A stretch of 64,000 nt of DNA from NCBI RefSeq assembly GCF_022539505.1, contig NC_061509.1, forward strand, positions 206,732,254 through 206,796,253. Reading direction: 5' to 3'. The notes below the pieces were generated by a model that saw nothing but the letters and a program-made list of their open reading frames with translations, was not told the origin of the DNA and ran no database searches. Positions 32,354-56,094 of this stretch are shown here, in pieces (position 1 is the stretch's first letter; each line of letters starts with the position of its first letter). The position numbers and the translations under genes are program-made. Source of the stretch: Lolium rigidum. Taxonomy: Eukaryota > Streptophyta > Magnoliopsida > Poales > Poaceae.

Positions 32354-33520
32354 TGTTGCCTACCAAAACCCACCGGCGAGCAGCGACGGGCAACACGTAG
32401 AGCCGGGAGGCTCCCAGGACTGCTGGTGGATCCTGGTCCCTCGGGCAACGGCCCGCAATGCTCCTGCACGCGTCCTGGCGGTTGCGAGGGCGTGCCACCT
32501 GACCTATACCTGGTCAGGAAGGTGATGGATTGCTTCGACTAATTTCTTGCATGGTAAACACGTAAACATTAAATACGAGCCCCGATCGGCTCTTAGATTG
32601 TTCTGTGGATCGGCTCAAGGAGCTGATTGCCCCATGGTCCACGTTGGGTTTACGATGACATGGGGATCCTGCCTTATCAATATCAAGCTAAACCAATCTA
32701 CGACAGTCTAGGGTTTTCACCGCATAACCGAAACATCCTACAGGTAATTGAGCCTAGCAGATACGTAGGATGATGGAAAACCAGCCCTAAAGAGGCCTAA
32801 AAACCAACATGAAGTTGATCCCCAGAACAATCCCTCGAGGGCTTAATAAACCACACCTTACGCACTACCGGATCGTTCAACCCGTTTGCAAGGCCTAACC
32901 ATGCAGATATCAAACTAATCCTTGTAGAACAAGGAACAACTATAACAGATCGGATCTACTAAACAAAGATTAAGCAAGATGATGCCCTTACACCCAAAAT
33001 AGGTGTAAGGGCAGCTAGATATTGAGGGGCAGTGTAGCTAAGCAAGCATATCATAAAAGCATCGACGTAAGCCCCAAAACATCTACGATAAGGGTGTTGC
33101 TCGCTATCAAAAAGGCTTCAGCACGAGCAACACCAACAACGAATAAAGTAATACCGCCTAGATCGCAAGATGCGATCTAGGCGGCATGTTGCTTACCCGG
33201 GAGAAACCCTCGAAACAAGGGGTGGCGATGCGCCTAGATTGGTTTGTTGTGAACGTGATCGTCCTGCTTTCTCAATAACCCTAGGTACATATTTATAGTC
33301 CGTGGACTTTCTATCTTGGGAACAAACCCAGCTGTGTACGACTAAAGTCTATCTCTTAATTCTAAACATAACACGTAATCTACCATAAAATACAGATACA
33401 CGGGCAATCTAGCCCAAATTCTCGCACAAGGCCGATTCAGAGACACTTCATATGCATGTCCTCTAAGCCCTTCTTCGATCACGGCCCATCTCCGGACTTG
33501 GTTAAAATCTGGTGATAACA
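32354..33520 (-). repeat. 3' LTR of the long Gypsy element
   Basis: The LTR is 1167 bp, the same length as the 5' copy. Its hairpin stem CCGCCTAGATCGCA lies at 33154-33167 with partner 33171-33184. The sequence just beyond it (33521-33531) is the complement of the purine tract that primes plus-strand synthesis. Confidence 0.92.
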
Positions 33521-33819
33521 CATGCCCCCTGGTTTTGGCAATGATAATTTCAAAACCACTCTGTTTTTTCTTCGTAGGGTCACGTCGTGGCAGAGCAGAA
33601 CCATCTGTTATCACCAGAATTTGACCGAGTCAGAGGTGGGCCGCGATCAAGATGGACTTGAAGATTATATATAGAAGAAATACATGAATCGGCCTCGTAT
33701 GCAACGTTTGGGCTAGTTTACCCTTGTATCATGTAACATATTAGATTACGTGTCGGTTAGGAGTTAGAGTTTTACCCGTGCACGGTTAGGTGCACACCTA
33801 AATTAGAAAGTCCCCGGGA

Positions 33820-33828
33820 CTATAAATA
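33820..33828 (+). promoter_or_regulatory. LTR TATA box of relative A
   Basis: CTATAAATA is conserved in all six LTRs of the three elements (for example minus strand near 50517-50525). It lies about 105 nt before the first leader hairpin, so the hairpins should be in the transcript. Confidence 0.7.
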
Positions 33829-33933
33829 TGTATCTAGGGTTTATGGAATAAACAACAACCAACGTTCAACCACAAACAAATCTCGGCGCATCGCCAACTC
33901 CTTCGTCTCGAGGGTTTCTACCGGTAAGCACCA

Positions 33934-34140
33934 TGCTGCCTAGATCGCATCTTGCGATCTAGGCAGCACAAGCCTGCCCACGTTGTTCATGCGTTGCTCG
34001 TACTGAAGCCTTTTTGATGGCGAGCAACGTAGTTATCTTAGATGTGTTAGGGTTAGCATTGTTCTTCGAATTACATGCTTTCGTTATGCAACCCTTGCAC
34101 GTCTAGCCGCCCTTACACCTATCTTAGGTGTAGGGGCGGC
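33934..34140 (+). other. Three conserved LTR leader hairpins
   Basis: Hairpin 1 (33934-33968) has a perfect 16-bp stem starting TGCTGCCTAGATCGCA around a TCT loop. Hairpin 2 (33992-34000 with 34021-34029) pairs CGTTGCTCG with CGAGCAACG. Hairpin 3 (34106-34140) pairs GCCGCCCTTACACCTA with its partner, one G-T pair, around another TCT loop. All occur in every LTR of the three elements. Between the long element and relative A, stem 1 changes T-A to C-G and stem 2 changes C-G to T-A, which preserves pairing. A role in dimerisation, packaging or translation of element RNA is inferred. Confidence 0.7.
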
Positions 34141-34779
34141 ACCCCGCTTGATCATAATTTAGTAGATCTGATCCGTTACGGTTGCTCCTTGTTTCATCAA
34201 GGATTAGTTTAACATCCGCAATAGTTAGGCCTTACAAAGGGTTGGAGGATCCAGCGGCGTGTAGGGTGGCGTTTGCTGGCCCTAGAAAGGATGTTCCGGG
34301 GATCAACCTCGTGTTGGTTTTTAGGCCCTCTCTAGGATCGGCTTACGGTCACCGTGCGCGAGCGCGAGGCCCAATCGTGAGTAGGATGATCCGATTATGC
34401 GGTGAAAACCCTAAATCGTCGTAGATCTCATCGGCTTTATCTTGATCAAGCTGTGACCACCATATATTCGGACACCCCGTCCGGATCATGGGTGGATCGG
34501 CTCTCGGAGCCGATTCACAGGATAACCCGAGAGCCGATCGAGGCTCGTATTTAATGTTTACGTGTGTGCCCTGCAGGAAACTAAGCGAGGCATCATCCAC
34601 ACCTTCCCGACCAGGTATAGGTCGGTGGCACGCCCTGCAATTGGCATCGGCGCGTGCGACCAGGAGGCTTTGCGGGCCGTCGCTCCGAGGGACCGGGGCC
34701 AGCCGCAGCCCTAGTTGTTCCCGGCTCTACCGTGTTGACCATCTCTGCCCGCCAGGGGGTTTCTGACGTCAACACATTC

Positions 34780-34797
34780 TGGCACGCCCGGTGGGAC
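34780..34797 (+). other. Primer-binding site of relative A
   Basis: TGGCACGCCCGGTGGGAC lies 5 nt inside the 5' LTR and is identical to the site of the long element. Sharing it is consistent with use of the same tRNA primer. Confidence 0.75.
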
Positions 34798-34835
34798 ACC
34801 CTTCAACATCCACCACATCGCCGTCTGCATCCGAG

Positions 34836-37606
34836 ATGGCGGAAAACACTCCGGTCACGTACGAGGATCTGCCTGATGAGCTCAAGAAGAAACATGACGA
34901 GATCAAGGCAACCCTCGAAGCCGAACTCATCGGCTCCTTCCACCGAACCCGCTCCCATGGCGTCAGGTGGAAGGGTTTCACACCTGAAGGCGCACTCGAT
35001 GGAGTGGATCTGTCCGCCCCGTCGAAGAACGCACCCAGGTCGCTGCGGCGAGGAGATCAACTACATGGTAGCTCATTCGCTGCACCAACACTCTGAGAGC
35101 CTGGTGAACACTTTGGAGCGTGTCGCTCTGCGCGTCGTCCAGGAAATCATGAGCCACCGGTATTCTCCATCGGCACCAGCTCTGGGGACTTTCAAGGGAG
35201 AGATGCCGCTCCAGCCCCAGCCGTTCGCATGGGCAGCACCGGAACTGCCGAACTCATCGGCATACATCGTCTACAAGATTGGTGGTGATCCTAGTGACTA
35301 CCAATTCCTACCTGAGGCACCCAAGGAGATCCCGCACGGATACGCGTGCGCATACGTACCGGACTGCAACGTCTGGGCACTCTCGAACCAGGCTGCAATA
35401 TCAGGGGCCTCTGGAACGGCAGGAGGAACGTCAGGAGCTGATCCTGAGAAGCAACCGTGGCTAGCTAAGTACGCCACTCCGACAAACCTCCAAAGCCCAG
35501 CTCCTGCAGTTGGCTTAGAACCGGAAAAGCAAGCATGGCTGGTTAAATATGCCACCCCGGCGAATCTTCGTGGTTCGACACCTTCAGCCCATCACAACGG
35601 ATCAGATTTGTGCAATTCGAAAGATCGGTCCGGCATGATGCCGAAAAGGAAGACGTTCGGCTACACCAAGCCGTACCCCAACGACTACGAACCGATCCCG
35701 CTACCACCCAAATATCGGCTCCCGGACTTCACGAAGTTTAGTGGATCGGAGGGTTCCAGCTCTATCGAGCATGTGAGCCGATATTTGGCACAAGCTGGGC
35801 ACGATCTCAGCATCAGACGAGTTGCGTGTGAGGTTCTTCGCACAGTCCCTCACAGGATCGGCTTTCGGGTGGTACACATCGCTGCCACCGAACTCCATCC
35901 GGACTTGGAAGCAGTTGGAAGAGCATTTCCATGAGCAGTATCACTCAGAGGCTTCCGATGTTGGTATTGCCGATCTAGCGCAAGTACGACGAAGCGCGGG
36001 AGACAAGTGTCGAATACGTCCAGCGCTTCGAGACCATTAGGAACCGATGCTTTTCGGCTCATATAAGTGAAAAAGAAGCAGTCGAGTTGGCGGTGGTGGG
36101 TCTCTCATCATCAATCAAGGACGTGGCCTCCCAAGCAGTACTACTCCTTCGTTGGCGCACATGGTGCGTAAGCTGTCGCATATGCACAGCGCCACCCGGA
36201 TGTTTACCAGGACAAATTCAAGCGTGCGGTGACCCCGGTTGAGGCGGACGAGGATGAAGGTGCTGCGGGAGATCGGGAGATAGCAAGTGGCTGAATGGAC
36301 TCGAGCGACGGGCCCCGTGACCTGCAAATGGGTGAAGCCACAAGGCCCTCCAAAAGGGTTCGACTTCGACGTGACCAAGACGGAGCAGATTTTTGATCTC
36401 TTACTCACGGAGAAGCATATAAAGGTACCCGAAGGCCACAAGTTCCCCACGGTACAAGAGCTGAACGGAAAGCCGTACTGCAAATGGCATAACACGTTCT
36501 CCCACACCACCAACGACTGCAGGGTGTGGCGGCAGCAGATCCAAATGGCGATAGAAAACGGACGGTTGATTTTCAACCAATACGCCATGAAGGTCGACAC
36601 ACACCCCTTCCCCGCCGTAAACATGGTGGAGTATACTTACCATGGAGGGTGCCAGCCGGATTTCTCGTGCCAAATCAATATGGTAGATCTTGGACACCAC
36701 GCTGGCAAGAATGGAGATGAGGGCAGCTGCTCTCATAGCGAGGATACAGAAGAAGCCGCTCCACGCGATCGGCTCCGCCAAGATGGCAAGCGCTACGTAA
36801 CAGAGGGAGAAGTGAGGAACATAAGATATCAGCGACCTCTCTCTGATCACCTCCTCAACAAGTATGTGAGTCAGTATGACCAACGCCGACGGTCCAGCAA
36901 TGATGATGAAAGAGATCGTCTGGCTAGAGAAGACAGGAGACGTCGTCGACATGATCGTGATGAGGAGGAGCACGTGCGCCGTGCCAAGGAAAAGTTGGGG
37001 GAGCAAGTCGACGAGGATAGGCACTGGGACTGTCCCTTCTTCAGACACTGCTGGGATTCAGGAATGAGCCGATTGCCCACAATCGGCAACTGCCCAGAAT
37101 GCAACCAGAAGAAGAAGGAGACAGCCCACGTGTCCGTGTTCAAGCGCCTAGGGCCTCTCCCGCCACAAAGTAAACGCGCTGAGTCCCCTCGGTTGAAAGA
37201 TCTCGAAGATTCAGAAGACGAGGGAGAAGAAGAAGACAGGTACCACCGGCCAAGGTGGTGCCCTGATGGACTCAGCCGTTCCCGTAAACGCAGGGTTCAG
37301 CGATTGCGCGGCCTGGAGGAAGCCGAGAGGTTATACTTGCATACATTGAGGAAGGCAAGGCCTGATCTGGCTGCGAAGGTTCAACAAACCCTGGATGAAG
37401 AGGGTCATCCACGGAAAATGGAGTGGCGCCCCAAGCAAAGGAAAGCCGATGATGAAACATCGGCTGGCAAAAACATGGTGCTCGTCCTTCCGACGAAGCT
37501 TAGTGCTCCACGTTTACACGATGCACTCAAGGTGGACGACAGCAAGCGCTCCAACATGATAAAGTCAGAGATTGGGCTGGTTTTATCCACCGGCCTAACC
37601 ATGTAG
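34836..37606 (+). pseudogene. gag of relative A, several frameshifts, ends without protease
   Basis: The start is the ATG at 34836 (MAENTPVTYEDLPDELKKKHDE). Frames change near 35030, 35810, 35990 and 36290. Blocks in order are EINYMVAHSLHQHSE, EIPHGYACAYVPDCN, KYRLPDFTKFSGSEGSSSIE, SLTGSAFGWYTSLPPNSIR, CKWHNTFSHTTNDC, an Arg/Asp-rich region, and CPFFRHC..CPEC. The last open part is 36287-37606. Compared with the long element, the protease DTG region has been deleted: the frame jumps from the FVLPTKLSAP segment straight to GLVLSTGLTM and stops. Confidence 0.85.
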
Positions 37607-38767
37607 CTGGAGCAAATCAATGAGCAAACGTGGCGAGGCTGATCCTTGTGATCGGCCCCCAAAAGTTTATGAAGGAACATTACAAAACCTTCATCGAATA
37701 AGCAACGTGGAGGCCGATCCCAGCAATCGGCCAAAATTATCCTCACCATCCATTCTGCCTGGGTTCAACATTTAATCCGACAGAGCCGATACCATCAAAC
37801 CTCTTGAAAGAATCGGCTCGGGGGGGCACCCAGGTGGATAAAACACAAGGATATGCAGTAGAAGTGTCTCATCCTTTGGTGATGAGTATTAAAGTATGGG
37901 GGGCGATGCATAAATCGGCCGTAAAAATTCGAAAAATTCTGAGCACAGCCGATGCAGCAGACATCGACTTAAGGATATAAAAGCCGATGCATGGCCATCG
38001 ACTCAAGAGGTGTAACTGTAACTGTCAGAGGATCAATGGAGGGAAGTGGACCACGAAGAGAGGCTGTGATGGGAGAACTCCTCAATGGAGTGGTTCAATG
38101 GTTCAATGGCTCAGGTTCTCTCTTCAAGAACAATGCCAAGAACAGCATGGATGTGCAGATCGGGCTAAGGCGGTCCGAAGAAGCTCGGGGGCAGCTCACC
38201 CTAAAGGTTCTCTCGCTTCCGAAGAGCCGATTTTGCCGGGAATCGGCTGGCTCTACATGAGTGTTCTCTCGTACATTGATCTGGCCTAGGCCCCTTTGTC
38301 TCGAATGGCATGCCCTCGTCTCTGTTTCGCCTTGACTGAGACTCGGGGGGCAGCTGGCCTGATAGATGCTCTGTTTTTTGAAAAGCCGATCGGTTAGCCA
38401 TCGGCTAGTTCTGTGCCGCGATTTGCGTCAAGGGTGATGATCTGGCGGAACTCAAGTTCATTGTTCGGAAGGATGAAGGATAATTCATGACGACTTGATG
38501 TGTTGACATCGGCTTATTGAGTTTTGACCAAGATTCCAGTCACCCTGTGGTCGAAAGATGAGGGGCGGATTACGAGAGACCGATGCGTTGCCATCGGCTC
38601 ATTGAGAATCGGTTCAAAAGAAATCGGCAATGCCAAATTGGGGAAATTTCTTCATTAATAAACAGGATTTCTTACAAAGGAAGAACCGATTACTCAAAGA
38701 AGGAAGAACAAAAGAAGGGTCTATTGACCAATTTACTACTGCTAGGCCTATACTAGTAGATCCTAAT
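37607..38767 (+). other. Spacer replacing pol in relative A, rich in GCCGATG/CATCGGC palindromes
   Basis: About 1.16 kb with no ORF of note. It is studded with palindromic words such as AGCCGATGCATGGCCATCGA (37981-38000), GCCGATCGGTTAGCCATCGGC (38384-38404) and CCGATGCGTTGCCATCGG (38581-38598). A segment at 38322-38356, containing CTCGGGGGGCAGCTGGC, matches in reverse orientation 45430-45465 of relative B, so the spacer is shared. Confidence 0.7.
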
Positions 38768-39209
38768 CTACGGGCCATCACTGCCCTCGTCGTCATCCTC
38801 GGAACTCTCATCGGCACTGCTGCCGATGGGCTCCTCGTCGCTACTCCCGTAGCCCTCTACAGGAGCTTCATCCCCGTCTTCATCATCGTTGCTGTCGTCG
38901 TCCCACCACATGCGGAGGCGTTTCGCCGGCGGGTAGCCCTCGAGGGAGTCGTCGTCGTCTTCCTCTTCCTCTTCTTCAGAGGTGGGGCAGCCGTCCCAGG
39001 GGAACCGGTCGTCCTCGCTTCGACTCCAGCTCCCCGTCGGCGAGGAACTGAAGATCTTCATCCCCGCTGGTCAAGGACTTGTCGTCCTCGGACCAAATGG
39101 AGGAGGCATGGCTCTCTTCGTCCCATTCTTCTGGGGCACGGATTTCCGGCGGCGTCTCGCGGGATGAGGAGGACCCGTAGGAAAGCTCCGAGGAGGAGGA
39201 AGAAGACAT
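38768..39209 (-). pseudogene. Antisense acidic Ser-rich ORF of relative A, one frameshift
   Basis: Starting at 39209 on the minus strand in CCACCATGT context, it reads MSSSSSSELSYGSSSS, then PEEWDEESHASSIWSEDD. A one-base change near 39010 moves to the frame SRSEDDRFPWDG..SEEEEEEDDDD, then PPAKRLR, then EGYGSSDEE. The C-terminal GSDGP ending is shared with the copy at 40857-41360. The break is single and recent-looking. The homologues in the other two elements are uninterrupted. Confidence 0.75.
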
Positions 39210-39277
39210 GGTGGCACAGCGGGTTTTTTTGGTGCTAAGGCGAGGAGGACGAAGGAGGCGCAAGCTGTTGAGAACGG

Positions 39278-39284
39278 TTAAATA
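39278..39284 (-). promoter_or_regulatory. TATA-like box of the antisense ORF, relative A
   Basis: The minus strand reads CCCTTTTATTTAACCG, 75 nt upstream of the ATG at 39209. It is identical in core to the boxes of the other two copies. Confidence 0.6.
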
Positions 39285-39480
39285 AAAGGGATATGAGGGA
39301 GATTCAATGCCACAGCAGTTTCCGAGGAGATGTTGCCCAACAGGAAGGTTTTGCGGCCACGTGGAGAAGTGGAGGGGGCAATGCATCATGATGAGGATTC
39401 TGCGGCGGTCTTTTGTTCTGCCACGACATGACCCGAGGAAAGAAGAGCATAATGATTTTGGAAATGTCATTTCCAAAACC

Positions 39481-39491
39481 AGGGGGGCATG
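39481..39491 (+). other. Polypurine tract of relative A
   Basis: AGGGGGGCATG is adjacent to the 3' LTR start at 39492. Its counterparts are at 33521-33531 and 44299-44309 on the minus strand. Confidence 0.65.
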
Positions 39492-40660
39492 TGTTATCAC
39501 CAGAATTTGACCGAGTCAGAGGTGGGCCGCGATCAAGATGGACTTGAAGATTATATATAGAAGAAATACATGAATCGGCCTCGTATGCAACGTTTGGGCT
39601 AGTTTACCCTTGTATCATGTAACATATTAGATTACGTGTCGGTTAGGAGTTAGAGTTTTACCCGTGCACGGTTAGGTGCACACCTAAATTAGAAAGTCCC
39701 CGGGACTATAAATATGTATCTAGGGTTTATGGAATAAACAACAACCAACGTTCAACCACAAACAAATCTCGGCGCATCGCCAACTCCTTCGTCTCGAGGG
39801 TTTCTACCGGTAGCACCATGCTGCCTAGATCGCATCTTGCGATCTAGGCAGCACAAGCCTGCCCACGTTGTTCATGCGTTGCTCGTACTGAAGCCTTTTT
39901 GATGGCGAGCAACGTAGTTATCTTAGATGTGTTAGGGTTAGCATTGTTCTTCGAATTACATGCTTTCGTTATGCAACCCTTGCACGTCTAGCCGCCCTTA
40001 CACCTATCTTAGGTGTAGGGGCGGCACCCCGCTTGATCATAATTTAGTAGATCTGATCAGTTACGGTTGCTCCTTGTTTCATCAAGGATTAGTTTAACAT
40101 CCGCAATAGTTAGGCCTTACAAAGGGTTGGAGGATCCAGCGGCGTGTAGGGTGGCGTTTGCTGGCCCTAGAAAGGATGTTCCGGGGATCAACCTCGTGTT
40201 GGTTTTTAGGCCCTGTCTAGGATCGGCTTACGGTCACCGTGCGCGAGCGCGAGGCCCAATCGTGAGTAGGATGATCCGATTATGCGGTGAAAACCCTAAA
40301 TCGTCGTAGATCTCATCAGCTTTATCTTGATCAAGCAGGACCACCATATATTCGGACACCCCGTCCGGATCATGGGTGGATCGGCTCCTGGAGCCGATTC
40401 ACAGGATAACCTGAGAGCCAATCGAGGCTCGTATTTAATGTTTACGTGTGTGCCCTGCAGGAAACTAAGCGAGGCATCATCCACACCTTCCTGACCAGGT
40501 ATAGGTCAGGTGGCACGCCCTTGCAATTGGCATCGGCGCGTGCGACCAGGAGGCTTTGCGGGCCGTCGCTCTGAGGGACTGGGGCCAGCCGCAGCCCTAG
40601 TTGTTCCCGGCTCTACCGTGTTGACCATCTCTGCCCGCCAGGGGGTTTCTGACGTCAACA
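39492..40660 (+). repeat. 3' LTR of relative A
   Basis: It has the same length as the 5' LTR and is about 99% identical by eye. It is preceded by the purine tract AGGGGGGCATG at 39481-39491, which fits the plus-strand primer site. Confidence 0.92.
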
Positions 40661-40777
40661 CCATCGCAGTATCCTTTCATCATGATGCCTTGCCTTCTCA
40701 ACTTCCCTGCACGATTTGACAGTTTTGGCACCACGTCCTCGGAAATTACCGCAGCATTAAATCTCTACTATATCCCC

Positions 40778-40789
40778 TTTTATTTAACC
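40778..40789 (+). promoter_or_regulatory. TATA-like box of the antisense ORF, long element
   Basis: CTTTTATTTAACC is preceded by a GCATTAAATCTC block. Both are kept upstream of the homologous ORFs at 44499-44505 (plus) and 39278-39284 (minus). Spacing to the ATG is 75-78 nt in all three, so this is a good candidate core promoter. Confidence 0.65.
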
Positions 40790-40856
40790 ACGTCGAGCAA
40801 CTCGCCTCTTCATCCCCTTGCTCCGTACTAGCAATCTAAAAGCCCTCCTCTACACC

Positions 40857-41360
40857 ATGGACTCCTCCTCCTCCTCTGCCTCATCGGCTCTCTCCTTCCA
40901 ATCCTCTTCCTCGAGCGAGCCGATGCCGGAGTACAACCAGATGGAGGCGTACAATAGGCGTGCTCCCGAGCATTGGGACAAGAGGGACTGGAACTTCGAC
41001 TTCGTGACAGATGGCCCACCCCTGACCGTCGTCGGATCAGATGACGATTTGCCCCTGACCGACGGGGAAGACGACCTCCGGTTCCTCGTCGACGGGGAAC
41101 TGGAGGCGGAGAGTGAGGACGACCTCTTCTCCTGGGGTGACTTCACTTCCTCCGACGAAGAGGAGGAAGAGGAGGACAACACCTCCTCCGACGAATACCC
41201 GCCGGCAAAGCGCTTCCGCGCCGGGTCGGATGACGACGATGACGACGACGAGGAGGAAGAAGCCCCTGCAGAGGGCTACGGCAGCAGCGACGAGGAGCTC
41301 GCCAGCAGCAGCGCCGATGGCGGCTACGACGGCGACGACGAGGGCAGCGACGGCCCTTAG
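40857..41360 (+). CDS. Antisense acidic Ser-rich ORF of the long Gypsy element
   Basis: The frame encodes 167 residues on the strand opposite gag-pol, between integrase and the 3' LTR. The ATG sits in ACACCATGG context, 76 nt after a TATTTAA box. The N-terminus is Ser-rich (MDSSSSSASS). The middle has repeated acidic runs (SSDEEEEEED). The C-terminus carries a PPAKRFR basic patch and a conserved EGYGSSDEELASSSA tail. The pattern suggests a nuclear acidic protein or regulator, but function is unknown. Homologues lie at 44577-44993 and 38768-39209 in the relatives, in the same antisense position. Antisense additional ORFs are known in some Tat-lineage elements such as maize Grande; I do not know this sequence. 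Confidence 0.75.
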   Translation: MDSSSSSASSALSFQSSSSSEPMPEYNQMEAYNRRAPEHWDKRDWNFDFVTDGPPLTVVGSDDDLPLTDGEDDLRFLVDGELEAESEDDLFSWGDFTSSDEEEEEEDNTSSDEYPPAKRFRAGSDDDDDDDEEEEAPAEGYGSSDEELASSSADGGYDGDDEGSDGP

Positions 41361-41744
41361 ATTAGGGACTACTAGCATAGGACTAGTAATAGCAATCTGC
41401 TCTTCTTTTGTTCTTCCTTTCCTGAGCAATCGTCTCTTCTCTGTAAAAAATCCCCTTTTAATCAATGAAGAAGGATTCCATGCTTGATTCTTCCGATCAT
41501 CAAAATAAATCAATGCTCAAAGAGCCGATGGCAACGCATCGGTCTTTACAAAAAACGCCAGCAAGGCCAGCCCCAAAAATTCAACCGGTGACCTGATACT
41601 TGCTTGTGATAGTTGTTCCTCTATAGTCGATGGCTACGCATCGGCTTTTAGTTCTAAAGTCGATGTCAGTGCATCGGCTGTGCTTTGCATATTAAATATT
41701 TTTTTATTTTTTACTGGCCAATTTCATGCATCGGCCCCCATATT

Positions 41745-43135
41745 TCACTGTCCATCTTCCCACATACTCGGGAAATATTTCTTGAGATGCTGACCATTGA
41801 CAGCCACTGAGAACTTCGCACCACTCAGCTCCTCGAGCATGTATGCATTGCCCTTTAAAACTTGGTCGACCCTGTACGGCCCGTGCCAATTTGGAGACCA
41901 TTTACCATACACCTTGTCCTTAGTCCCCAATGGCAATACAGCTTCCCATACTAGATCACCAACGTGGAACTCCTTTGGCTTCACCTTCTTATTATATGCA
42001 CGAGCTACCTTGGCTTTGTTCTCTTTAATCTTCTCAAGCGACCAAAGTCTAAGTTCCGTGACATCCTCAATGCTATCACTCATCGTGGCAGCATATTCTT
42101 CGCTTGTTAAATCATTCTGAAACGTAATCCGCCTCGAGCCAGCCGTGATTTCCCAGGGCAACACTGCTTCTTGTCCATAGACCAGATGGTATGGCGAGGT
42201 TTTTACCGCTCCATGACATGACATGCGATAAGCCCACAAAGCCTCTGACAATACCTCGTGCCAACGTCTAGGGTGCTCGTCGATTTTCCTCTTAATCAGC
42301 TTGATAAGGCTCTTGTTGGACGCTTCAGCCTGCCCATTTTCTTGCGCATAGTATGGAGACGATCGGATCAGCTTAATTCCCATGTCCTCGCAGAACTCTC
42401 TAAACTCGCGAGAAATGAAGACCGAACCTCCATCGGTCGTGATATTCTGGGGAATCCCGAATCTGTGAATGACATGCTCTTTCACAAAATTAATAACATC
42501 GGCCGATGCTACTGACTTCATAGGAACGGCCTCCACCCATTTAGTAAAATAATCTGTGATGGCCAAAATCCACACATGGCCTTTGCTCGATGGAGGATTG
42601 ATTTTGCCGATCATATCCATACCCCAACCTCGAAACGGCCAAGGCTTGATGATGGGGTTCATTGCTGATGCAGGTGCCATCTGAATTTTCCCAAACTTCT
42701 GACATGCTTGACACCCTTTATAGTAATTAAAACAATCCTCCAGCATGGTGGGCCAATAAAACCCCGATCGCCTGATCAACCATTTCATCTTATGAGCGGA
42801 CTGATGAGTTCCACAGGCGCCTTCATGTACCTCGTGTAAGAGCCGATTTGACTCGGCTGGCCCCAAACACCTGAGAAGTAATCCTTCCAAAGTCATGTAG
42901 AACATGTCATCCCCAATAAGGACATACTTCATGGCCTTGTACCTTATCCGTTTAGGTGCCCCCCGAGCCGAATCTTTCAAGTAATTGAAGATATCGGCTC
43001 TCCAATCATCCGGCTCCATGAACTGTACCTGGACATCGGCTCCATCTACTATGTCCTTGTAGCCTGACGCCATCTGTGCGAGATCGTTCGCCTCGGTAAT
43101 CTGCGACCTCGGGACCCAATTGAAGTTTATGTACC
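41745..43135 (-). pseudogene. pol: integrase part of the long Gypsy element, separated by insertion
   Basis: This open stretch continues pol after the nested element. It shows an H-H-C-C zinc domain (HEVHEGACGTHQ..CQACQKFG) near 42700-42840. The catalytic core has Asp in LAITDYFTKWVEA near 42545-42575, Asp in ITTDGGSVF near 42425-42445, and Glu in the ENGQAEASNKS segment near 42315-42345. A WHGPYRV motif lies near 41875. No chromodomain follows, supporting Tat rather than chromovirus. Integrase would join element DNA to chromosomes. It is intact as an ORF but cut off from RT by the 7.6-kb insertion. Confidence 0.88.
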
Positions 43136-44298
43136 TGTTGCGGTCAGAAACCCACCGGCGGGCAGCGACGGGCAACACCGTAGAGCCGGGAATCTCCCAG
43201 GACTGCGGCTGGCCCTGGTCCCTCCGAGCGACGGCCCGCAAAGCCTTCGGCACGCACGTCCGATGCTGATGCAGGGCGTGCCACCTGACCTATACCTGGT
43301 CGTGAAGGTGTTGGATGATGCCTCGCTTAGTTTCCCGCATGGCATACACGTAAACATTAAATACGAGCCTCGATCGGCTCTCGGGTTATCCTCGTGAATC
43401 GGCTCAAAGAGCCGATCCACCCATGATGCGTACGAGGTGTACGATCAGATGGTGGTCCTGCTTGATCAAGATAAAGCTAAAGCGACCTACTACGATTTGG
43501 GGTTTTCACCGCATAATCGGAACATCCTACTCGTGATCGAGCTCGGCGGCCACGCACGGTGATCGTAAACCGACCCTAGACAAGGCCTAAAAACCAACAC
43601 GAAGTTGATCCTCGGAACATCCTGTCTAGGGCTAGCAAACTACACCGTACGCGCCACTGGATCCTTCGACCCGTTTGTAAGGCCTAACAATGCAGATATT
43701 AAACTAATCCTTGAAGAACAAGGAGCAATCATAACGGATCGGATCTACTAAACAATGATCAAGCGGGGTGCCGCCCTTACACCCAAGATAGTTGTAAGGG
43801 CGGCTAGATGCCTAAGGGTTGCACGACGATAGCATATGATACGAAGAACAATGCTAACCCTAACACATCTATGATAACTACGTTGCTCGGCATCAAAAAG
43901 GCTTCAGCACGAGCAACGCATGAACGACGAATAAACGTGTGCTGCCTAGATCGCAAGATGCGATCTAGGCAGCATGGTGCTTACCCGGAAGAAACCCTCG
44001 AGACGGGGGAGTTGGCGATGCGCCGAGATTGGTTTGTGGTGAACGTGATTGTTGTTTATTTCATAAACCCTAGATACATATTTATAGTCTATAGACTTTC
44101 TAACGTGGGAATAATCCCAACCGGGCACGAGCCCAAACTCTATCTAACCGACACGTATCCTACTATGGTACAGATACACGGGCAAACTAGCCCAAACTTT
44201 GTATACAAGGCCAATTCATGTATTTCTTCTATGTATATTCTTCAAGCCCATCTCCAATCGCGGCCCACCTCTGATCCGGTCAAATTCTGGTGATAACA
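43136..44298 (-). repeat. 3' LTR of relative B
   Basis: 1163 bp with TG..CA ends. Hairpin 1 lies at 43940-43974 and hairpin 3 at 43770-43804, each able to form a long stem around an AGA loop on this strand. Confidence 0.9.
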
Positions 44299-44498
44299 CA
44301 TGCCCCCCTGGTTTTGGAAATGTCATTTCCAAAATCATTATGCTTTTCCTTCGTCGGGTCATGTCGTGGCAGAGCAAAATCGTTGCAGAGTCTTTCACCA
44401 CGTCGCCTCGCCTCCTTGGCTTCTCTGCATGAATTGATAGTTTCGGCATCACGTCCTCGAAAACCGTCGCGGCATTAAATCTCCACTATATCTCCTTT

Positions 44499-44505
44499 TA
44501 TTTAA
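44499..44505 (+). promoter_or_regulatory. TATA-like box of the antisense ORF, relative B
   Basis: CCTTTTATTTAACCG is 78 nt upstream of the ATG at 44577, after GGCATTAAATCTCCAC. An AATCAATAAGAAT word near 45093-45105, about 100 nt after the stop, may serve as polyadenylation signal. Confidence 0.6.
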
Positions 44506-44576
44506 CCGCATTGAGTAATTCGCTTCTTCATCCTCTCCCTCAGTATCAGACACCGAAAAAAAAAACCTTTCCCACC

Positions 44577-44993
44577 ATGGATTCATCCTCCTCCTCCGCT
44601 GCATCGGCCATCTCCTTCCAATCCTCTTCCTCAAGCGAGCCGACGCAAGAGCACAACCAACATGAAGAGCCGGAGTGGGACTTTGGCTTCGTGCCCGACG
44701 GCCCACCTGAAGCCCTCGTCGGGTCAGATGGGGATTCGCCCCTGCCCGATGAAGAAGAGGAGGGTGGAGAAGATGAAACCTCCTCCGACGAGGAAGAAGA
44801 GGAGGGCGACACTTCCTCTGATGAGCCGCCGGCGAAGCGCTTCCGCGGCTGGGCCTGGTCCGATGACGACGAGGATGACGATGAAGAGGAAGAAGCCCCC
44901 ATCGAGGGCTACGGCAGTAGCGACGAGGAGCTTGCCAGCAGCAGCACCGGCGGCGGCTACAATGGCGATGATGAGGACAGCAACAGCCCCTAG
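44577..44993 (+). CDS. Antisense acidic Ser-rich ORF of relative B, intact
   Basis: The frame encodes 138 residues on the strand opposite gag, with the ATG in CCCACCATGG context. It starts MDSSSSSAASAISFQSSSSS, has a short aromatic-acidic block (EPEWDFGFVPDGPP), then acidic runs, PPAKRFRG, and EGYGSSDEELASSST near the end. It is shorter than the 167-residue copy mainly by loss of central residues, and the frame stays open. The gag of the same element is broken many times, so an open antisense frame here is notable. Cellular role is unknown. Confidence 0.75.
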   Translation: MDSSSSSAASAISFQSSSSSEPTQEHNQHEEPEWDFGFVPDGPPEALVGSDGDSPLPDEEEEGGEDETSSDEEEEEGDTSSDEPPAKRFRGWAWSDDDEDDDEEEEAPIEGYGSSDEELASSSTGGGYNGDDEDSNSP

Positions 44994-46221
44994 AGCAGGG
45001 GCCAATTAGCGTAGGACTAGTAGTAGCAGTGCATTAGGCATCGGATGATCTTTTTGAGAGCCATCGGCTCTTTCTTGTAAAGCCGTCCCTTTGAATCAAT
45101 AAGAATTGTTCCTCCAATTTGTCTCCCAATTTATCTAATCTCAAGTCCTCCATTTGCCGCACCAATACCGACAGCAACGTGTCGGATTTCTCGCCTCAGA
45201 CGCCCATGAAGCCAGATTCAGATACCAATTTAGACCGTCAGTCAAGAACTTCTCAAATTCAGACTGTAATCTGATATCTGACCATAATACTTTGCAATTC
45301 TATAGCCGATGGCTGTTCATCGGCTCTTTTGAAAAATCCAGTTTCCTTCATCTTCTTGCAGCAACAGGACGGTCCAGACCCGCTTTCGAAGAAGTTCACG
45401 ATGCAGGGTCAGCCGATGATACTCTACCGAATCAGCTGCCCCCCGAGCCTCAGTCAAGGCGAGAATGGCGGTGAGGAGATACCGTTCAGACAAACGGACC
45501 CAAACTTGAGCGAATCCGAGCAAACTTGCACCATCGATCACCTTTTCTTCCGTTGAAAGCCGATATCGAAGGCGAAGCATCAATCAGCTTAACCGACAAA
45601 GGGTTGTAATACCTTGAAGAGAAAGTTCTGGCACCAAATCGGCTCATTGTCGCTGAGGAAGCTCTCACTGTTTACTCCCTCCAGGAATCAGAAGGTGACC
45701 CGCGTCTTCCAGGAACACGCAGCGGGTAGATCTTGTGTAATTGTGCTAGAGTCGATGGCTATGCATCGGCTTTGTTCCTTAGCTCTAAAGTCGATGTACG
45801 TGCATCGGCTGTATATCATGAGAATAATAAAAAAAATTTACGGGCCGATTTTTCTATCGGCCCCCAATGTTTTCACTGCACATGTATCGCACATGTTCAT
45901 CTGATTAGGTGCCCCCCGAGCCGATTCTCGCCGTGTAACCGCCGATATCGGCTCCGTGGTTAGCCAAGGCACTATATGTGAACGTCGGCTCTGTTAGGAC
46001 CAGTGTGGATTTCCTCCAGCTCATCAGCCGACGCAAACCCATTGCTCATTAGATCGACGTTGAACCCAGGCAGATTGAATGGTGAGGATAATTTTGGCCG
46101 ATTGCTGGAATCGGCCTCCATGTTGCTTGCTCGATGAAGGTTTTGCAATGTTCCTCCATAGATCCTTGGGGCCGATCACATGGATCGGCATCGCCACGTT
46201 TATCCATAGATGTTGATCTTG
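44994..46221 (-). other. Spacer replacing pol in relative B, with palindromic words
   Basis: About 1.2 kb without coding blocks. Palindromes include AGCCGATGGCTGTTCATCGG (45304-45323), GTCGATGGCTATGCATCGGC (45752-45771) and GTCGATGTACGTGCATCGGC (45789-45808). Segments CTGCCCCCCGAGCCTCAGTC (45438-45457) and GGTGCCCCCCGAGCCGATTC (45908-45927) have reverse-oriented matches in relative A. The two short elements thus share one replacement for pol. Confidence 0.7.
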
Positions 46222-49200
46222 TTACACGGTCAGGCCGGTGGATAAAACCAGCCTAACCCCATCCTTTGTCACGTCGATGCGCTCGCAGTCGTCCAAATTG
46301 ATGCCTGAGAGTGGCTCTTGGCCTGATGTCTCCCAAACATTCATGCCAGCCGTTGAAATCTCGGCTGAATCATCTGCGTGGACGACTTCTACTTCATCTC
46401 CATCCCACCGTATTAGGCATTGATGCATCGTGGATGGAATGCAACAGCTTGGCGTGGATCCAATCTCTCCCTAGTAGGACAGCGTAAGTGCTCTTGCTCG
46501 TCGACAATAAAGAACGTCGTAGGGACGGCTTTTCCTTCCTACGGTCAGATCCACATTCAGAACACCTTGTGCGTCAGATGCTTGGCCGTTGAAATCGCTC
46601 AGAGTCACATTGGTCTTGATCAGATCCGAGCTAGAGCGTCCCAACCGACGTAGCATGGAGTATGGCATAATGTTGACTGCCGCTCCGGGTCCACCAAGCA
46701 TCTTGTTGACAAAGCTGCCCATTGATGTAACCTCGCAAGTACAGTGGCCTTCGTATGCTCCGTATCTTCTTTCTCGTGGCTTCTCAAAGATGACCGGCCG
46801 TGGGCCGCAGTCAAGTTGTGCCACAGGTGCTTCGTCCACTCCTAGAGCACTAAACTCCGTTGGAAGGATGAACACCATGTTTGTGCCAGCCGATGTCTCA
46901 TCATCGGCTTTCTTTTGTCTGGGGCGCCACTCTTTCCTTTGTGGCCGACCTTCTTCGTCTAGGGTTCGCTGGATTTTAGCGGCCAGATCAGGCCGCGCCT
47001 TCCTCAACGTGTGCAGGTATAACCTTTCGGCTTCGTCCAACCCACGTAGACGCTGAACCCTCCGCTTTTGGGAACGGCTGAGCCCATCAGAGCACCACCT
47101 TGGCCGATGATACTTGTCTTCTTCTTCATCATCGTCCTCTAGTTCCTCGAGATCTTCCACCCGAGCGGACTCAGCGTTCTTGTTCCGAGGCGGGAGAGGC
47201 CCTAGACGTTTGAATACGGACACGTTAGCTGCATCCTTCTTCTTCTGTCTAACATTCTGGGCAGTTGCCGATTGTAGGCAATCGGCTCATTCCTGAATCC
47301 CAGCAGTGTCTGAAGAAGGGGCAGTCCCAGTGCCTATCCACGTCGTCTTGCTCTCTCGACTTTTCCTTGGGGTGGCGCTCATATCGCTCCTCGTTGCGAT
47401 CATGCCGACGACGTCTCCTGTCGTCCCTAGCCAGACGATCTTTTTCATCATCGTTGTTGTATCGCCGGCGTTGGTCATATTGACCCACATACTTGTTGAG
47501 GAGGTGATCAGAGAGAGGTCGCTGATATCTTGCGTTCCTCACTTCTCCCTCTGTGATGTAGCGCTTGCCATCGTGATGGAGCCGATCGCGTGGAGCGGCT
47601 TCCTCTGTGTCCTTGCTATGAGAGCAGCTGCCCTCATCTCCGTCCTTACCAGAGTGGTGCCCAGGTCCTACCATGTTGATATTGCATGAGAATCCTGGCT
47701 GGCACCCTTCATGGTAAGTGCACTCCACCATGTTAACGGCGGCGAAGGGGTGTGTGTCGACCTTCATGGCGTACTGGCTGAAAATTAGCCGCCCTTGTTC
47801 TATCGCCATTTGGACATGCTGACGCCACACCCTGCAGTCGTTAGTGGCGTGGGTGAACGTGTTATGCCACTTGCGCATGGCTTTCCGTTCAGCTCCCTGC
47901 ACCGTGGGGATCTTGTGGCCTTCGGGTAACTTTAGCTGCTTCTCCTTGAGTCAGAGGTCGAAAATCTGCTCAGCTTTGGTCACGTCGAAGTCAAACCCTT
48001 TTGGAGGACCTTGTGGCTTGACCCACTTACAGGACACGGGGCTTGCCCCCCGAGTCCATCCGGCTACTGCTACCTCTTGATCTCCCGCAGCACCTTCATC
48101 TTCCTCCCGCCTCAACCAGGACCACCGCACGCTTGAATTTATCCCGGTAAACATCCGGGTGGCGCCGTTCATATGCCGACGCTTTCGCACCATGTGCGCC
48201 GCTGAAGGGTAGTCCGCTTGGGAGGCCACGTCCTTGATCGATGATGAGAGACCCACCACCGCCAACTCGATCGCTTCTTTTTCACTCACATGAACCGAAT
48301 AGCATCGGTTCCTAACGGTCCCGAAGCGCCGGACGTATTCTCGCCACCGTTTCCCCGCGCTTCGTCGTACTTGTGCTAGATCGGCAATGCCAGCCTCTGA
48401 AGCTTCGAGTGATACCGCACGTGGAACCGTTCTTCCAACCGCTTCCAAGTCCGGATTGAGTTTGGTGGCAGCGATGTGTACCACCCGAAAGCCGATCCCG
48501 TGAGGGATCGTGCGAAGAACCTCACACGCAGCTCGTTTGATGCTGAGATCGTGCCCAGCTGTGCCAAATATCGGCTCACATGCTCGATGGAGCTGGAACC
48601 ATCTGATCCATTAAACTTGGTGAAATCAGGGAGCCGATATTTGGGTGGTAGCAGGATCAATTCGTACTCGTTGGGGTACGGCTTGGAATAGCCGATTGTC
48701 CTCCTTTTCGGCATCATACCGAACTGGTCCTTCAGGATTGTACAGATTTGATCCGCGGTGATGGCTGCAGGCGTCGAACTCTGAAGATTCGCCGGGGTGG
48801 CATACTTAGCCAGCCATGCTTGCTTTTCCAGCTCCGAGCCAACCGGCAGAGCTGAGCTCCGGAGGTTTGTCGGAGTGGCATACTTAGCTAGCCACGTCCG
48901 CTTCTCGAGATCTGTTCCCGACGTTCCTCATGCTGTTCCAGAAGTCCCTGCTGTTGCAGCCTGGTTCGAGAGTGCCCAGTTGCTGTAGTCTGGCACGTAT
49001 GCGCACGTGTATCCGTGGGGGATCTCCTTGGGCGCCTCATGTAAGAGTTGGTAGTCACTAGGGTCACCACCAATCTTGTAGACGACGTATGCCGATGAAC
49101 TCGGCACTTCTGGTGCTGCCAACGCGAACGGCAGCGGTGGACGGGACTGGAGTGGCATCTCTCCTTGGTAAGTCCCCAGAGCTGGTCCTGACGGAGAATA

Positions 49201-49523
49201 CTGATGGCTCATGATTTCCCGGATCACGCGCAGAGCGACACGCTCCAAGGTGTTCACCAAGCTCTCAGAATGGCGGTGCAGCGAATGAGCCACCATGAAG
49301 TTGATCTCCTGACGCAGCGACCTGGTGCGTTCTTCTGACGGGGTGGACAGGTCCACTCCATCGAGCGCGCCTTCAGCTGAGAACCCTTTCCACCCGATGC
49401 CATGTGAGCGGGTTCGTGAAAAGAGCCGATGAGGTCGGCTTCGAGGACTCGCTTTGATCTCGTCATGCTTCTTCTTGAGCTCCTCGGCCGATCCTCGTAC
49501 TTGACCGGAGTGCCTTCCGCCAT
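46222..49523 (-). pseudogene. gag and protease remnant of relative B
   Basis: The probable start is the ATG at 49521-49523. Open pieces are 48928-49520, 48376-48717, 47951-48484, 47249-47902, 46471-47223 and 46222-46428, in changing frames. Together they show the same blocks as the other copies, including EINFMVAHSLHRHSE, KYRLPDFTKFNGSDGSSSIE, a C-X2-H..H..C knuckle that has lost its first Cys (MRKWHNTFTHATNDC), and CPFFRHC..CPEC. In the protease the catalytic DTG reads GPG (LGGPGAAVNIMP), so it could not be active even if the frame were open. Confidence 0.85.
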
Positions 49524-49561
49524 CTCGTATGTAGATGGCGATGCGGTTGATGTCGAAGATT

Positions 49562-49579
49562 GTCCCACCGGGCGTGCCG
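49562..49579 (-). other. Primer-binding site of relative B, altered first base
   Basis: The minus strand reads CGGCACGCCCGGTGGGAC. The first base, normally T pairing with the terminal A of tRNA CCA, is C here; the other 17 positions match the relatives. Confidence 0.7.
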
Positions 49580-49584
49580 TAATG

Positions 49585-50738
49585 TGTTGCGGTCGTAAAC
49601 CCACCGGCGGGCAGCGACGGGCAACACCGTAGAGCCGGGAATCTCCCAGGATCGGCGGGCCTGGGAGCGACGGCCCGCAAAGCCTTCGGCACGCACGTCC
49701 GATGCTGATGCAGGGCGTGCCACCCGACCTATACCCGGTCGTGAAGGTGTTGGATGATGCCTCACTTAGTTTCCCGCATGGCATACACGTAAACATTAAA
49801 TACGAGCCTCGATCGGCTCTCGAGTTATCTCCGTGAATCGGCTCAAAGAGCCGATCCACCCATGATGCGTACGAGGTGTACGATCGGATGGTGGTCCTGC
49901 TTGATCAAGATAAAGCTAAAGCGACCTACTACGATTTGGGGTTTTCACCGCATAATCGGAACATCCTACTCGTGATCGAGCCTGGCGACCACGCACGGTG
50001 ATCGTAAACCGACCCTAGACAAGGCCTAAAAACCAACACGAAGTTGATCCTCGGAACATCCTGTCTAGGGCTAGCAAACTACACCCTACGCGCCAATGGA
50101 TCCTTCGACCCGTTTGTAAGGCCTAACAATGCAGATATTAAACTAATCCTTGAAGAACAAGGAGCAATCATAACGGATCGGATCTACTAAACAATGATCA
50201 AGCGGGTGCCGCCCTTACACCCAAGATAGGTGTAAGGGCGGCTAGATGCCTAAGGGTTGCACGACGATAGCATATGATACGAAGAACAATGCTAACCCTA
50301 ACACATCTATGATAACTACGTTGCTCGCCATCAAAAAGGCTTCAGCACGAGCAACGCATGAACGACGAATAAAGTAGTGCTGCCTAGATCGCAAGATGCG
50401 ATCTAGGCAGCATGGTGCTTACCCGGAAGAAACCCTTCGAGACAAGGGGAGTTGGCGATGCGCCGAGATTGGTTTGTGGTGAACGTGATTGTTGTTTATT
50501 TCATAAACCCTAGATACATATTTATAGTCCGTAGACTTTCTAACGTGGGAATAATCCCAACCGGGCACGAGCCCAAACTCTATCTAACCGACACGTATCC
50601 TACTATGGTACAGATACACGGGCAAACTAGCCCAAACTTTGTATACAAGGCCGATTCATGTATTTCTTCTATGTATATTCTTCAAGCCCATCTCCAATCG
50701 CGGCCCACCTCTGATCCGGTCAAATTCTGGTGATAACA
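49585..50738 (-). repeat. 5' LTR of relative B
   Basis: 1154 bp. The TATA box (minus) is near 50517-50525. Hairpin 1 lies at 50378-50412. A short deletion near 49650 (CCAGGATCGGCGGGCCTGG) accounts for most of the length difference from the other LTR. Confidence 0.9.
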
Positions 50739-50743
50739 GTACC

Positions 50744-52804: not shown

Positions 52805-53007
52805 GTCGATGGATGTTGCTCTTGCTACTTGGTCAGGACGGTGGATAAGACCAGCCTCACCCCGTTTTTTGTAACCTCGATGCGATCACAGCCGTCCAAA
52901 CTGATTCCAGAGAGCGGCTCTTGGTCTTCCGAGTCCCAAATATTCATGCCAGCTATTGAGACCTCGATCGAGTCGTCTGCATGGACGACCTCCACTTCAT
53001 CTCCATC

Positions 53008-56036: not shown

Positions 56037-56071
56037 GGTTGCTGCAGATGTCGACGTAGTTGCTGTAGCGT

Positions 56072-56089
56072 GTCCCACCGGGCGTGCCA
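56072..56089 (-). other. Primer-binding site of the long Gypsy element
   Basis: The minus strand reads TGGCACGCCCGGTGGGAC, 5 nt inside the LTR. The same 18-mer is at 34780-34797 in the plus-oriented relative. I do not assign the tRNA with confidence. Confidence 0.75.
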
Positions 56090-56094
56090 GAATG

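What the first reader, a model, noticed from the sequence alone, without database searches (positions are those of the whole stretch)
38768..44993. Conserved antisense acidic gene in three related Gypsy elements
Each of the three related elements carries, opposite to gag-pol and near the 3' LTR, a Ser-rich then Asp/Glu-rich ORF (40857-41360, 44577-44993, 38768-39209). All share a PPAKR basic patch and an EGYGSSDEE tail. Two are open and one has a single frameshift, while gag in the same copies is broken many times. Antisense extra ORFs are known in some Tat-lineage elements such as maize Grande, but I do not recognise this protein family. It could be a nuclear regulator of the element or of host silencing; that is inference.
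Basis: partly seen in the sequence, partly recalled or inferred. Interest (0 to 1): 0.9.

Follow-up and report, generated by a model that had tools for sequence, protein, structure and literature searches.

The report
Antisense accessory gene of grass retrotransposons
Three nested ryegrass-type retrotransposons each carry a small backwards-facing gene for an acidic protein that natural selection has kept working in many copies, with relatives in other grasses, and the same elements are studded with one short conserved DNA word, which together may form a self-control system of this mobile DNA.

Summary
Three nested Tat-type Gypsy elements (A, B, C) each carry, opposite to gag-pol and close to the 3' LTR, a Ser-rich then Asp/Glu-rich ORF; C and B are open, A has one frame break. 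It is a gene. In the window's own genome, 31 of 39 copies chosen only by their non-coding leader keep the frame open (about 38% expected from neutral substitution alone). dN/dS is 0.25-0.36 over 74 ORFs, 0.22-0.40 in copies without the integrase end beside it and 0.30 in the B subfamily; most other frames are near or above 1. A TATA-like block is the most conserved part of the leader. Homologues form three divergent families (one with Lolium, one with Zea entries) sharing a WDF / LTDG / FLxDGEL / SW core; none of 66 members scanned has the TRP28 domain of known Retand antisense ORFs. Best reading: a disordered, nuclear-type acidic regulator with its own promoter, possibly part of a motif-guided activation or anti-silencing system. 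The gene is shown; nuclear location, function and the link to the motif are inferred.

The parts
40857..41360 (+). aORF of element C, 167 aa, open
44577..44993 (+). aORF of element B, 138 aa, open, lacks most of the LTDG/FLxDGEL middle; member of a uniform 137-138 aa subfamily
38768..39209 (-). aORF of element A, broken by one frame change; both pieces carry family motifs
40767..40786 (+). TATA-like block (CTATATC..CCTTTTATTTA) before the C aORF, most conserved part of the leader
44486..44504 (+). same TATA-like block before the B aORF
39279..39297 (-). same TATA-like block before the A aORF
41460..41469 (+). AATCAATGAA, polyadenylation-signal-like, about 100 nt after the C aORF stop (weak evidence)
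45094..45103 (+). AATCAATAAG, polyadenylation-signal-like, about 100 nt after the B aORF stop (weak evidence)
33606..40660 (+). element A, LTR retrotransposon with gag-like frames and aORF; no RT, RNase H or integrase found; TSD CCATC
43136..50738 (-). element B, LTR retrotransposon with gag-like frames, protease similarity and aORF; no RT, RNase H or integrase found; TSD GTACC
32354..57261 (-). element C, pol-bearing Tat-type element, interrupted by A and B; TSD ATTTT
41748..43133 (-). C integrase (H2C2, rve)
50739..51068 (-). C additional RNase H (RVT_3, E 1.5e-10), cut by the B insertion
50920..52074 (-). C reverse transcriptase and native RNase H
53011..54522 (-). C frame with aspartic protease
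37610..38640 (.). A, end of gag to aORF: 10 copies of ATCGGCT/AGCCGAT (9.7 per kb)
45110..46470 (.). B, aORF to end of gag: 9 copies of ATCGGCT/AGCCGAT (6.6 per kb)
41361..41744 (.). C, aORF to integrase stop: 3 copies of ATCGGCT/AGCCGAT (7.8 per kb), kept in 36 of 40 aligned cases in related copies

Best explanation
Shown: the ORF is a true accessory gene of a Tat-type Gypsy lineage, antisense to gag-pol, with a conserved TATA-like block and an ATG-free leader, kept by purifying selection at the protein level, also in the subfamily of B, whose window copy has no RT, RNase H or integrase, and in copies without the integrase end beside the gene. Inferred: it has its own transcript; the product is an intrinsically disordered acidic protein that enters the nucleus through its basic cluster (PPAKRFR in the Lolium type, PPSKRRRL in the Zea type) and acts by short motifs (W-D-F, LTDGExDLxFLxDGEL, SW) in the way acidic activation domains do, raising or protecting transcription of its own element. 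Because the elements also carry dozens of conserved, orientation-free ATCGGC(T/C/A) words, I think it most likely acts together with a factor that binds those words (host or element encoded), as a sequence-specific activation or anti-silencing system. Selected retention in copies that have lost pol suggests a benefit tied to the copy that carries it. My levels: real selected antisense gene 0.97; nuclear acidic regulator 0.6; connection to the motif 0.3.
For: Selection: 31/39 leader-chosen copies open, against 0.38 by a neutral simulation at 8% divergence, substitutions only; omega 0.25-0.36 in 74 ORFs, pN<pS in 2701 of 2701 pairs, bootstrap 0.33-0.37, window C-B pair 0.19; 0.22-0.26 with CpG sites masked; 0.22-0.40 in 18 copies without the integrase end and 0.30 in the B subfamily. 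Coding gaps are multiples of three in 5/5 (B-C), 4/5 (A-C) and 5/6 (A-B), against 2/6, 2/9 and 4/10 outside. Promoter: the 20 nt at -90 to -71 have 0.96-0.98 pairwise identity; TATA-like match in 75/75; no ATG in the last 70 nt of the leader in 75/75; leader divergence 0.126 against pS 0.272 in 36 protein-selected copies. Position: 70/74 copies have the LTR end + PPT 279-317 nt upstream of the ATG. Family: overlapping lists of 102, 34 and 349 database proteins, shared core. Mechanism: strict K[KR]x[KR] in 79/101, 18/32 and 47/120, looser basic cluster in 85/101, 24/32 and 106/120; acidic-activation-domain tile in 94/101, 31/32, 120/120 and in C; disordered model with short helices at 28-35 and 72-76. 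Motif.
Against: No expression, localisation or binding data. Composition-shuffled proteins also pass the activation-domain rule often (means 78/101, 18/32, 104/120), and window B has no such tile although its subfamily is still selected, so the activation core is not indispensable. The protein has no recognisable DNA-binding domain, so nothing ties it to ATCGGCT. The strict basic motif is missing in 73 of 120 members of the third family. Frame -1, whose third positions coincide, shows nearly as low an omega over the whole ORF (0.29-0.41), a lower one in the first 34 codons (0.19-0.32 against 0.24-0.55) and about equal in the tail; only the middle (0.33-0.52 against 0.20-0.37) and the stops (open in 1 of 31) favour the + frame. 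In the B subfamily one shifted frame is at 0.84. Copies are related, so the 39 are not independent trials.
Confidence: 0.5

Rival explanations
1. The protein serves replication rather than transcription: an acidic, NLS-bearing chaperone or adaptor that helps Gag, integrase or the pre-integration complex enter the nucleus or contact chromatin (histone-chaperone or DNA-mimic like).
For: Asp/Glu tail, Ser/acidic repeats and a basic cluster fit; PMC7264820 (parts 1-2 of 3 read) proposes a role like that of retroviral accessory factors for antisense ORFs.
Against: A trans-acting replication factor would be expected to decay where pol was lost; it is kept under selection in copies without the integrase end (0.22-0.40) and in the B subfamily (0.30).
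Confidence: 0.2
2. Silencing suppressor that hooks Argonaute through its conserved tryptophans (W40, W45, W93 of C).
For: Three tryptophans conserved in all three families in an acidic setting predicted to be disordered.
Against: They are mostly not WG/GW pairs (read by eye); the B subfamily lacks W40 and W93 yet is selected. The Argonaute-hook idea is recalled, no call tested it.
Confidence: 0.1
3. The antisense RNA, not the protein, is the functional product (dsRNA or transcriptional interference).
For: Antisense transcripts of LTR elements can be regulatory (PMC7264820 part 2; PMC12786077 passages). The leader is less diverged than synonymous sites.
Against: Amino-acid level selection, three-base indel phase and cross-family protein conservation.
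Confidence: 0.07
4. Low-complexity GA-rich DNA that is open by chance, or a gag-pol-strand frame as the real gene.
For: Several overlapping open frames in single copies; frame -1 omega 0.29-0.41 overall and lower than the + frame in the first 34 codons.
Against: Among the 31 open copies each of the other five frames is open in 0-2; the neutral simulation predicts fewer open copies; homologues in other grasses are in the + frame.
Confidence: 0.03
5. For the motif: ATCGGC(T/C/A) is an RNA hairpin or packaging signal, or a host factor site, unrelated to the aORF protein.
For: Sites lie in the later part of the LTR, gag, pol and the 3' noncoding part and are nearly absent from the LTR stretch next to the aORF and from the aORF leader; 15 of 22 neighbours within 40 nt are inverted pairs that could form hairpins.
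Against: Orientation is balanced (29 sense, 26 antisense of 55) and many sites have no close neighbour, which fits double-stranded DNA better; not decisive.
Confidence: 0.45

Closest known systems
Grande gene23 (maize, Retand-type element)
   Same: Antisense ORF between pol and 3' LTR with its own promoter, protein reported nuclear (from PMC7264820, parts 1-2 of 3 read; the primary 2013 paper was not read)
   Different: Sequence relation not testable here (gene23 sequence not held). In PMC11963269 nearly all Retand clusters, from a survey that used Grande as one query, carry TRP28; none of the 66 family members scanned here does
Retand-lineage antisense TRP28 ORFs (PMC11963269, parts 1 and 3 of 5 read)
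   Same: Antisense, pol-3'LTR position
   Different: No TRP28 domain; pol-3'LTR stretch of C is about 1.16 kb, not 2.9-6.6 kb
VANC / VANDAL anti-silencing system of Arabidopsis (PMC5735166, PMC10398659, passages read)
   Same: A short DNA word accumulated in the element, and an accessory protein encoded by it
   Different: VANDALs are DNA transposons (recalled); the VANC21 word YAGTATTAY often sits in tandem repeats in non-coding parts and is bound by VANC21; here the word is dispersed, also in coding DNA, and no binder is known
RLG_Wilma/Sabrina/WHAM system of wheat (PMC9744471, passages and sections 12-13 read)
   Same: Abundant gag or gag-protease elements beside pol-bearing partners; non-autonomous variants with unique short coding segments
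   Different: There partners share almost no sequence; here A, B and C share LTR ends, gag and aORF. The word antisense does not occur in that main text (0 hits)
Plant mobile domain (PMD) genes of Gypsy elements (PMC5418596, passages read)
   Same: A PMD gene lies in relatives L091-L093, on the aORF strand
   Different: A separate domain; not part of the aORF protein

Membership tests
Tat clade of Ty3/Gypsy | additional RNase H next to the native RNase H, before integrase | tested here: met
   RVT_3 at 50739-51068 (-), E 1.5e-10, beside RT_RNaseH, cut by the B insertion; integrase at 41748-43133 on the other side of B
Tat clade of Ty3/Gypsy | reverse transcriptase phylogeny | not tested
   no reference set of lineage RT sequences held
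Retand lineage with TRP28 antisense ORF | antisense ORF between pol and 3' LTR | tested here: met
Retand lineage with TRP28 antisense ORF | TRP28 (PF04195) domain in the antisense protein | tested here: not met
   0 of 66 members at E<=0.1
Retand lineage with TRP28 antisense ORF | pol-3'LTR region of 2.9-6.6 kb | tested here: not met
   about 1.16 kb in C with the A insertion left out, counted
gene23-like accessory gene | own promoter | tested here: inconclusive
   conserved TATA-like block and leader; no RNA data
gene23-like accessory gene | nuclear protein | not testable with these tools
   basic cluster only
gene23-like accessory gene | sequence homology to gene23 | not tested
   gene23 sequence not held
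VANC-type sequence-specific anti-silencing | short word accumulated in the element | tested here: met
   ATCGGCT 55 against 2.66 expected, conserved between elements
VANC-type sequence-specific anti-silencing | element-encoded protein binds the word and removes methylation | not testable with these tools
   no binding or methylation data
VANC-type sequence-specific anti-silencing | word in tandem repeats of non-coding DNA | tested here: not met
   dispersed, also in gag

The most novel reading that the evidence does not exclude
A plant LTR retrotransposon lineage has its own sequence-specific activation or anti-silencing system: an antisense-encoded acidic nuclear protein works with a factor that reads dozens of conserved ATCGGC(T/C/A) words spread through the element, including coding DNA, and derivatives that lost pol stay in the system by keeping both gene and words.
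Probability: 0.25. Interest if true: 0.92.

Novelty: new variant of a known kind. Interest (0 to 1): 0.74.

Why it matters
Antisense genes of plant retrotransposons are known but have no established function (PMC7264820, PMC11963269). This one is short, abundant and under measurable selection, it can be followed through pol-bearing and pol-less types in one genome, and its elements carry a candidate target word. That makes the question testable: what does the protein do to its own element, and who reads ATCGGCT? If it is an anti-silencing system, it would be an LTR-retrotransposon counterpart of VANC.

Tried and rejected
Chance ORF and gag-pol-strand frame: judged unlikely, with the reservation that the -1 frame has a low omega too. 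CpG decay as the source of low omega: rejected, masked omega 0.22-0.26. Known domain or solved relative: none in Pfam for C or B; among 66 members only three single-member matches of E 0.005-0.04; none among PDB sequences. Copies in viral contigs: none. AlphaFold gave a mostly low-confidence model (mean pLDDT 59), so no fold search was made. Counting indel phase against C in 39 copies (multiples of three 0 of 44 leader, 146 of 344 ORF, 47 of 180 downstream) was set aside because low-complexity DNA aligns with compensating gaps; the three window copies were used instead. In one search I translated the integrase end in a wrong frame; the hits reflect DNA homology only, and the frame was corrected. 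A-type copies could not be sampled: each A-type genome search was unanswered. Motif conservation in the PMD segment of L091 is not above background (5/7 and 6/7 against 0.72 and 0.69), although the word is the top or joint top 7-mer there.

Rows dropped: of 88 sequences 8 were not open and 6 were dropped for shifted ends or N. The 40 loci L051-L090 were chosen rows at 72-86% identity listed without an inside stop, so they do not count for openness. Of the 40 leader hits, 39 were fetched (the other is the window). Of the 40 B-type hits, 20 were fetched; 12 of 20 are open to the family end by my reading (the script's own count of 13 of 21 includes the window and L113, which is out of frame in the middle, and misses L101). 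Of the 349 proteins, 120 were listed.
Full report
Anatomy. The stretch 32,354-57,261 is a nest of three related LTR retrotransposons. C is a - strand element (TSD ATTTT) with protease, reverse transcriptase, native RNase H, an additional RNase H and integrase found as separate pieces, which places it in the Tat clade by domain content (PMC10508981, passages read). B sits in its pol, A between its aORF and its 3' LTR. tblastn of the C pieces finds no RT, RNase H or integrase in the interiors of A and B at E<=1e-3; B keeps gag and protease similarity (protease 61% over 97 aa), A gag only. LTR distances are 0.010 (A), 0.024 (B) and 0.018 (C), about 0.4-0.9 My at the rate of 1.3e-8. The window lies in a 2.44 Gb assembly; named homologues from Lolium perenne and L. 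multiflorum make a ryegrass likely (inference).

The gene. Each element carries the ORF opposite to gag-pol near the PPT and 3' LTR. A three-way alignment shows a shared leader with a CTATATC-CCTTTTATTTAACC block about 70-90 nt before the ATG, the ORF, and AATCAATGAA-type signals about 100 nt after the stop. Coding gaps between window copies are multiples of three in 5 of 5 (B-C), 4 of 5 (A-C) and 5 of 6 (A-B), against 2 of 6, 2 of 9 and 4 of 10 outside.

Selection. Copies were sampled by the non-coding leader of C alone. 31 of 39 keep the ORF open to the family stop (one, L018, has a large in-frame deletion). A neutral simulation of the C ORF gives 38% free of nonsense at 8% divergence, ignoring frameshifts; leader divergence was 7.6% and ORF divergence 10.6%. 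Among the 31, each other frame is open in 0-2. Pooled Nei-Gojobori ratios over 74 ORFs are 0.25-0.36 by divergence class; four other frames give 1.2-1.7 (1.0-2.1 in the small <3% class) and the frame sharing third positions 0.29-0.41. By region the + frame gives 0.20-0.37 in the middle (frame -1: 0.33-0.52), 0.25-0.38 in the tail (0.20-0.39) and 0.24-0.55 in the first 34 codons (0.19-0.32), so ratios alone do not separate the two strands outside the middle; openness does. Bootstrap over sequences gives 0.33-0.37, and pN<pS in 2701 of 2701 pairs. With CpG sites masked the ratio is 0.22-0.26. The integrase end in the same copies gives 0.12-0.13 and, by my count of stops and frame changes, is open in 11 of 17; the aORF is open in 13 of those 17. 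So the aORF is less constrained per site than integrase but about as intact.

Copies that lost pol. 22 of 39 leader-chosen copies lack the integrase end beside the aORF; 18 of 22 are open, with ratios 0.22-0.40. Three of the 22 were read over 5 kb: they have only relics of pol there, with other DNA in its place; the other 19 were not read further. B-type copies keep a uniform 137-138 aa form that lacks most of the LTDG/FLxDGEL middle; 12 of 20 sampled are open, ratio 0.30 with one shifted frame at 0.84; of these elements only the window copy was read whole. The gene is thus still selected in at least two groups of copies without the integrase end beside it or related to an element without pol.

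Regulatory unit. Over 75 leaders the 20 nt at -90 to -71 have pairwise identity 0.96-0.98, the highest of the leader; a TATA-like match is in 75 of 75, no ATG stands in the last 70 nt in 75 of 75; a purine is at -3 in 61 of 74 and G at +4 in 53 of 74. In 36 copies chosen by protein the leader diverges 0.126, the 3' flank 0.199 and synonymous sites 0.272. The LTR end and PPT lie 279-317 nt upstream of the ATG in 70 of 74; in the window C copy they are displaced by A.

Family. Three database searches gave overlapping lists of 102, 34 and 349 proteins (120 of the 349 listed), which I sort into three divergent families. One holds Lolium entries, one Zea mays entries; the listed members of the third bear no organism. 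Across 66 aligned members P37, W40, D41, W45, D46, F47, S61, D64, L67, T68, D69, G70, L74, F76, L77, D79, G80, E81, L82, S92 and W93 are the commonest residue in at least 70% of each family (C numbering; C itself has N46). A basic cluster lies in the middle in the Lolium type and at the C-terminus in the others; strict K[KR]x[KR] occurs in 79 of 101, 18 of 32 and 47 of 120. No Pfam family is matched by more than one of 66 members and no PDB sequence matches. The model is of low confidence with two short helices, as for a disordered protein. The published rule for acidic activation domains (PMC10550315, passages read) is met in 94 of 101, 31 of 32 and 120 of 120, against means of 78, 18 and 104 after shuffling, so composition explains much of it.

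A conserved DNA word. ATCGGCT or its complement occurs 76 times in the window against 7 expected; 73 lie in the nest. In the single-copy parts there are 55 against 2.66 expected; ATCGGCC (23) and ATCGGCA (17) are also raised. It is the commonest 7-mer in the A and B interiors (18 and 19; at most 8 for any word in 60 simulations each). Orientation is balanced, 29 to 26. Between A and B the word is kept at 14 of 16 and 14 of 18 sites against 0.35 of other 7-mers (0.38 of CpG-bearing ones); between A and C gag at 6 of 8 both ways against 0.13; between B and C gag at 7 of 9 and 7 of 8 against 0.17. In C-type copies it is kept in 36 of 40 cases against 0.66. It occurs in 39 of 39, 39 of 40 and 3 of 3 fetched loci and is the top or joint top 7-mer in the PMD segment of L091-L093. 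It is nearly absent from the aORF leader and the LTR stretch next to it. 15 of 22 close neighbours are inverted pairs. This points to selection on a short word, most simply a binding site in double-stranded DNA; an RNA hairpin is not excluded.

Mechanism. Shown: a selected antisense gene with a conserved leader, and a conserved DNA word in the same elements. Inferred: an own transcript, nuclear entry, acidic activation or anti-silencing, and joint action with a reader of the word. The nearest working analogy is VANC in VANDAL transposons (PMC5735166, PMC10398659, passages read), with the differences listed. The nearest relatives by position are gene23 of Grande and the TRP28 ORFs of Retand; TRP28 membership was tested and not met.

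In print. Ten literature searches listed no paper that in what I read describes this family or the word. The library holds open papers only; the surveys by Steinbauerova 2011 and Gomez-Orte 2013 were not read and may include relatives.

Noticed in passing
L091:1596-2264 (and L092, L093): Relatives that lost pol carry, on the aORF strand, a plant mobile domain gene (PF10536, E 3e-14 in L091), partly decayed; pairwise omega 0.12-0.28 among three copies. PMD genes are known in Gypsy elements (PMC5418596, passages).
   Followed up: partly
L091:3913-4524: A second ORF on the aORF strand with a coiled-coil-like stretch and a weak DUF1409 match; P0101 joins an aORF start to the same kind of sequence.
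   Followed up: partly
33606-50738: Mosaic: A and B are about 85% alike over LTR and gag, but their aORF leader and body are only 64% alike, and B's aORF is closer to C (80%).
   Followed up: partly
43136-50738 and 32354-57261: B is nested in C, yet its LTRs differ slightly more (27 against 21 substitutions); within noise or conversion.
   Followed up: partly
P0100, P0101, P0129: Database gene models in Lolium and Zea that fuse part of this aORF to other coding sequence.
   Followed up: no
31602-31951: Short-period direct repeat array just left of element C (15 overlapping copies).
   Followed up: no
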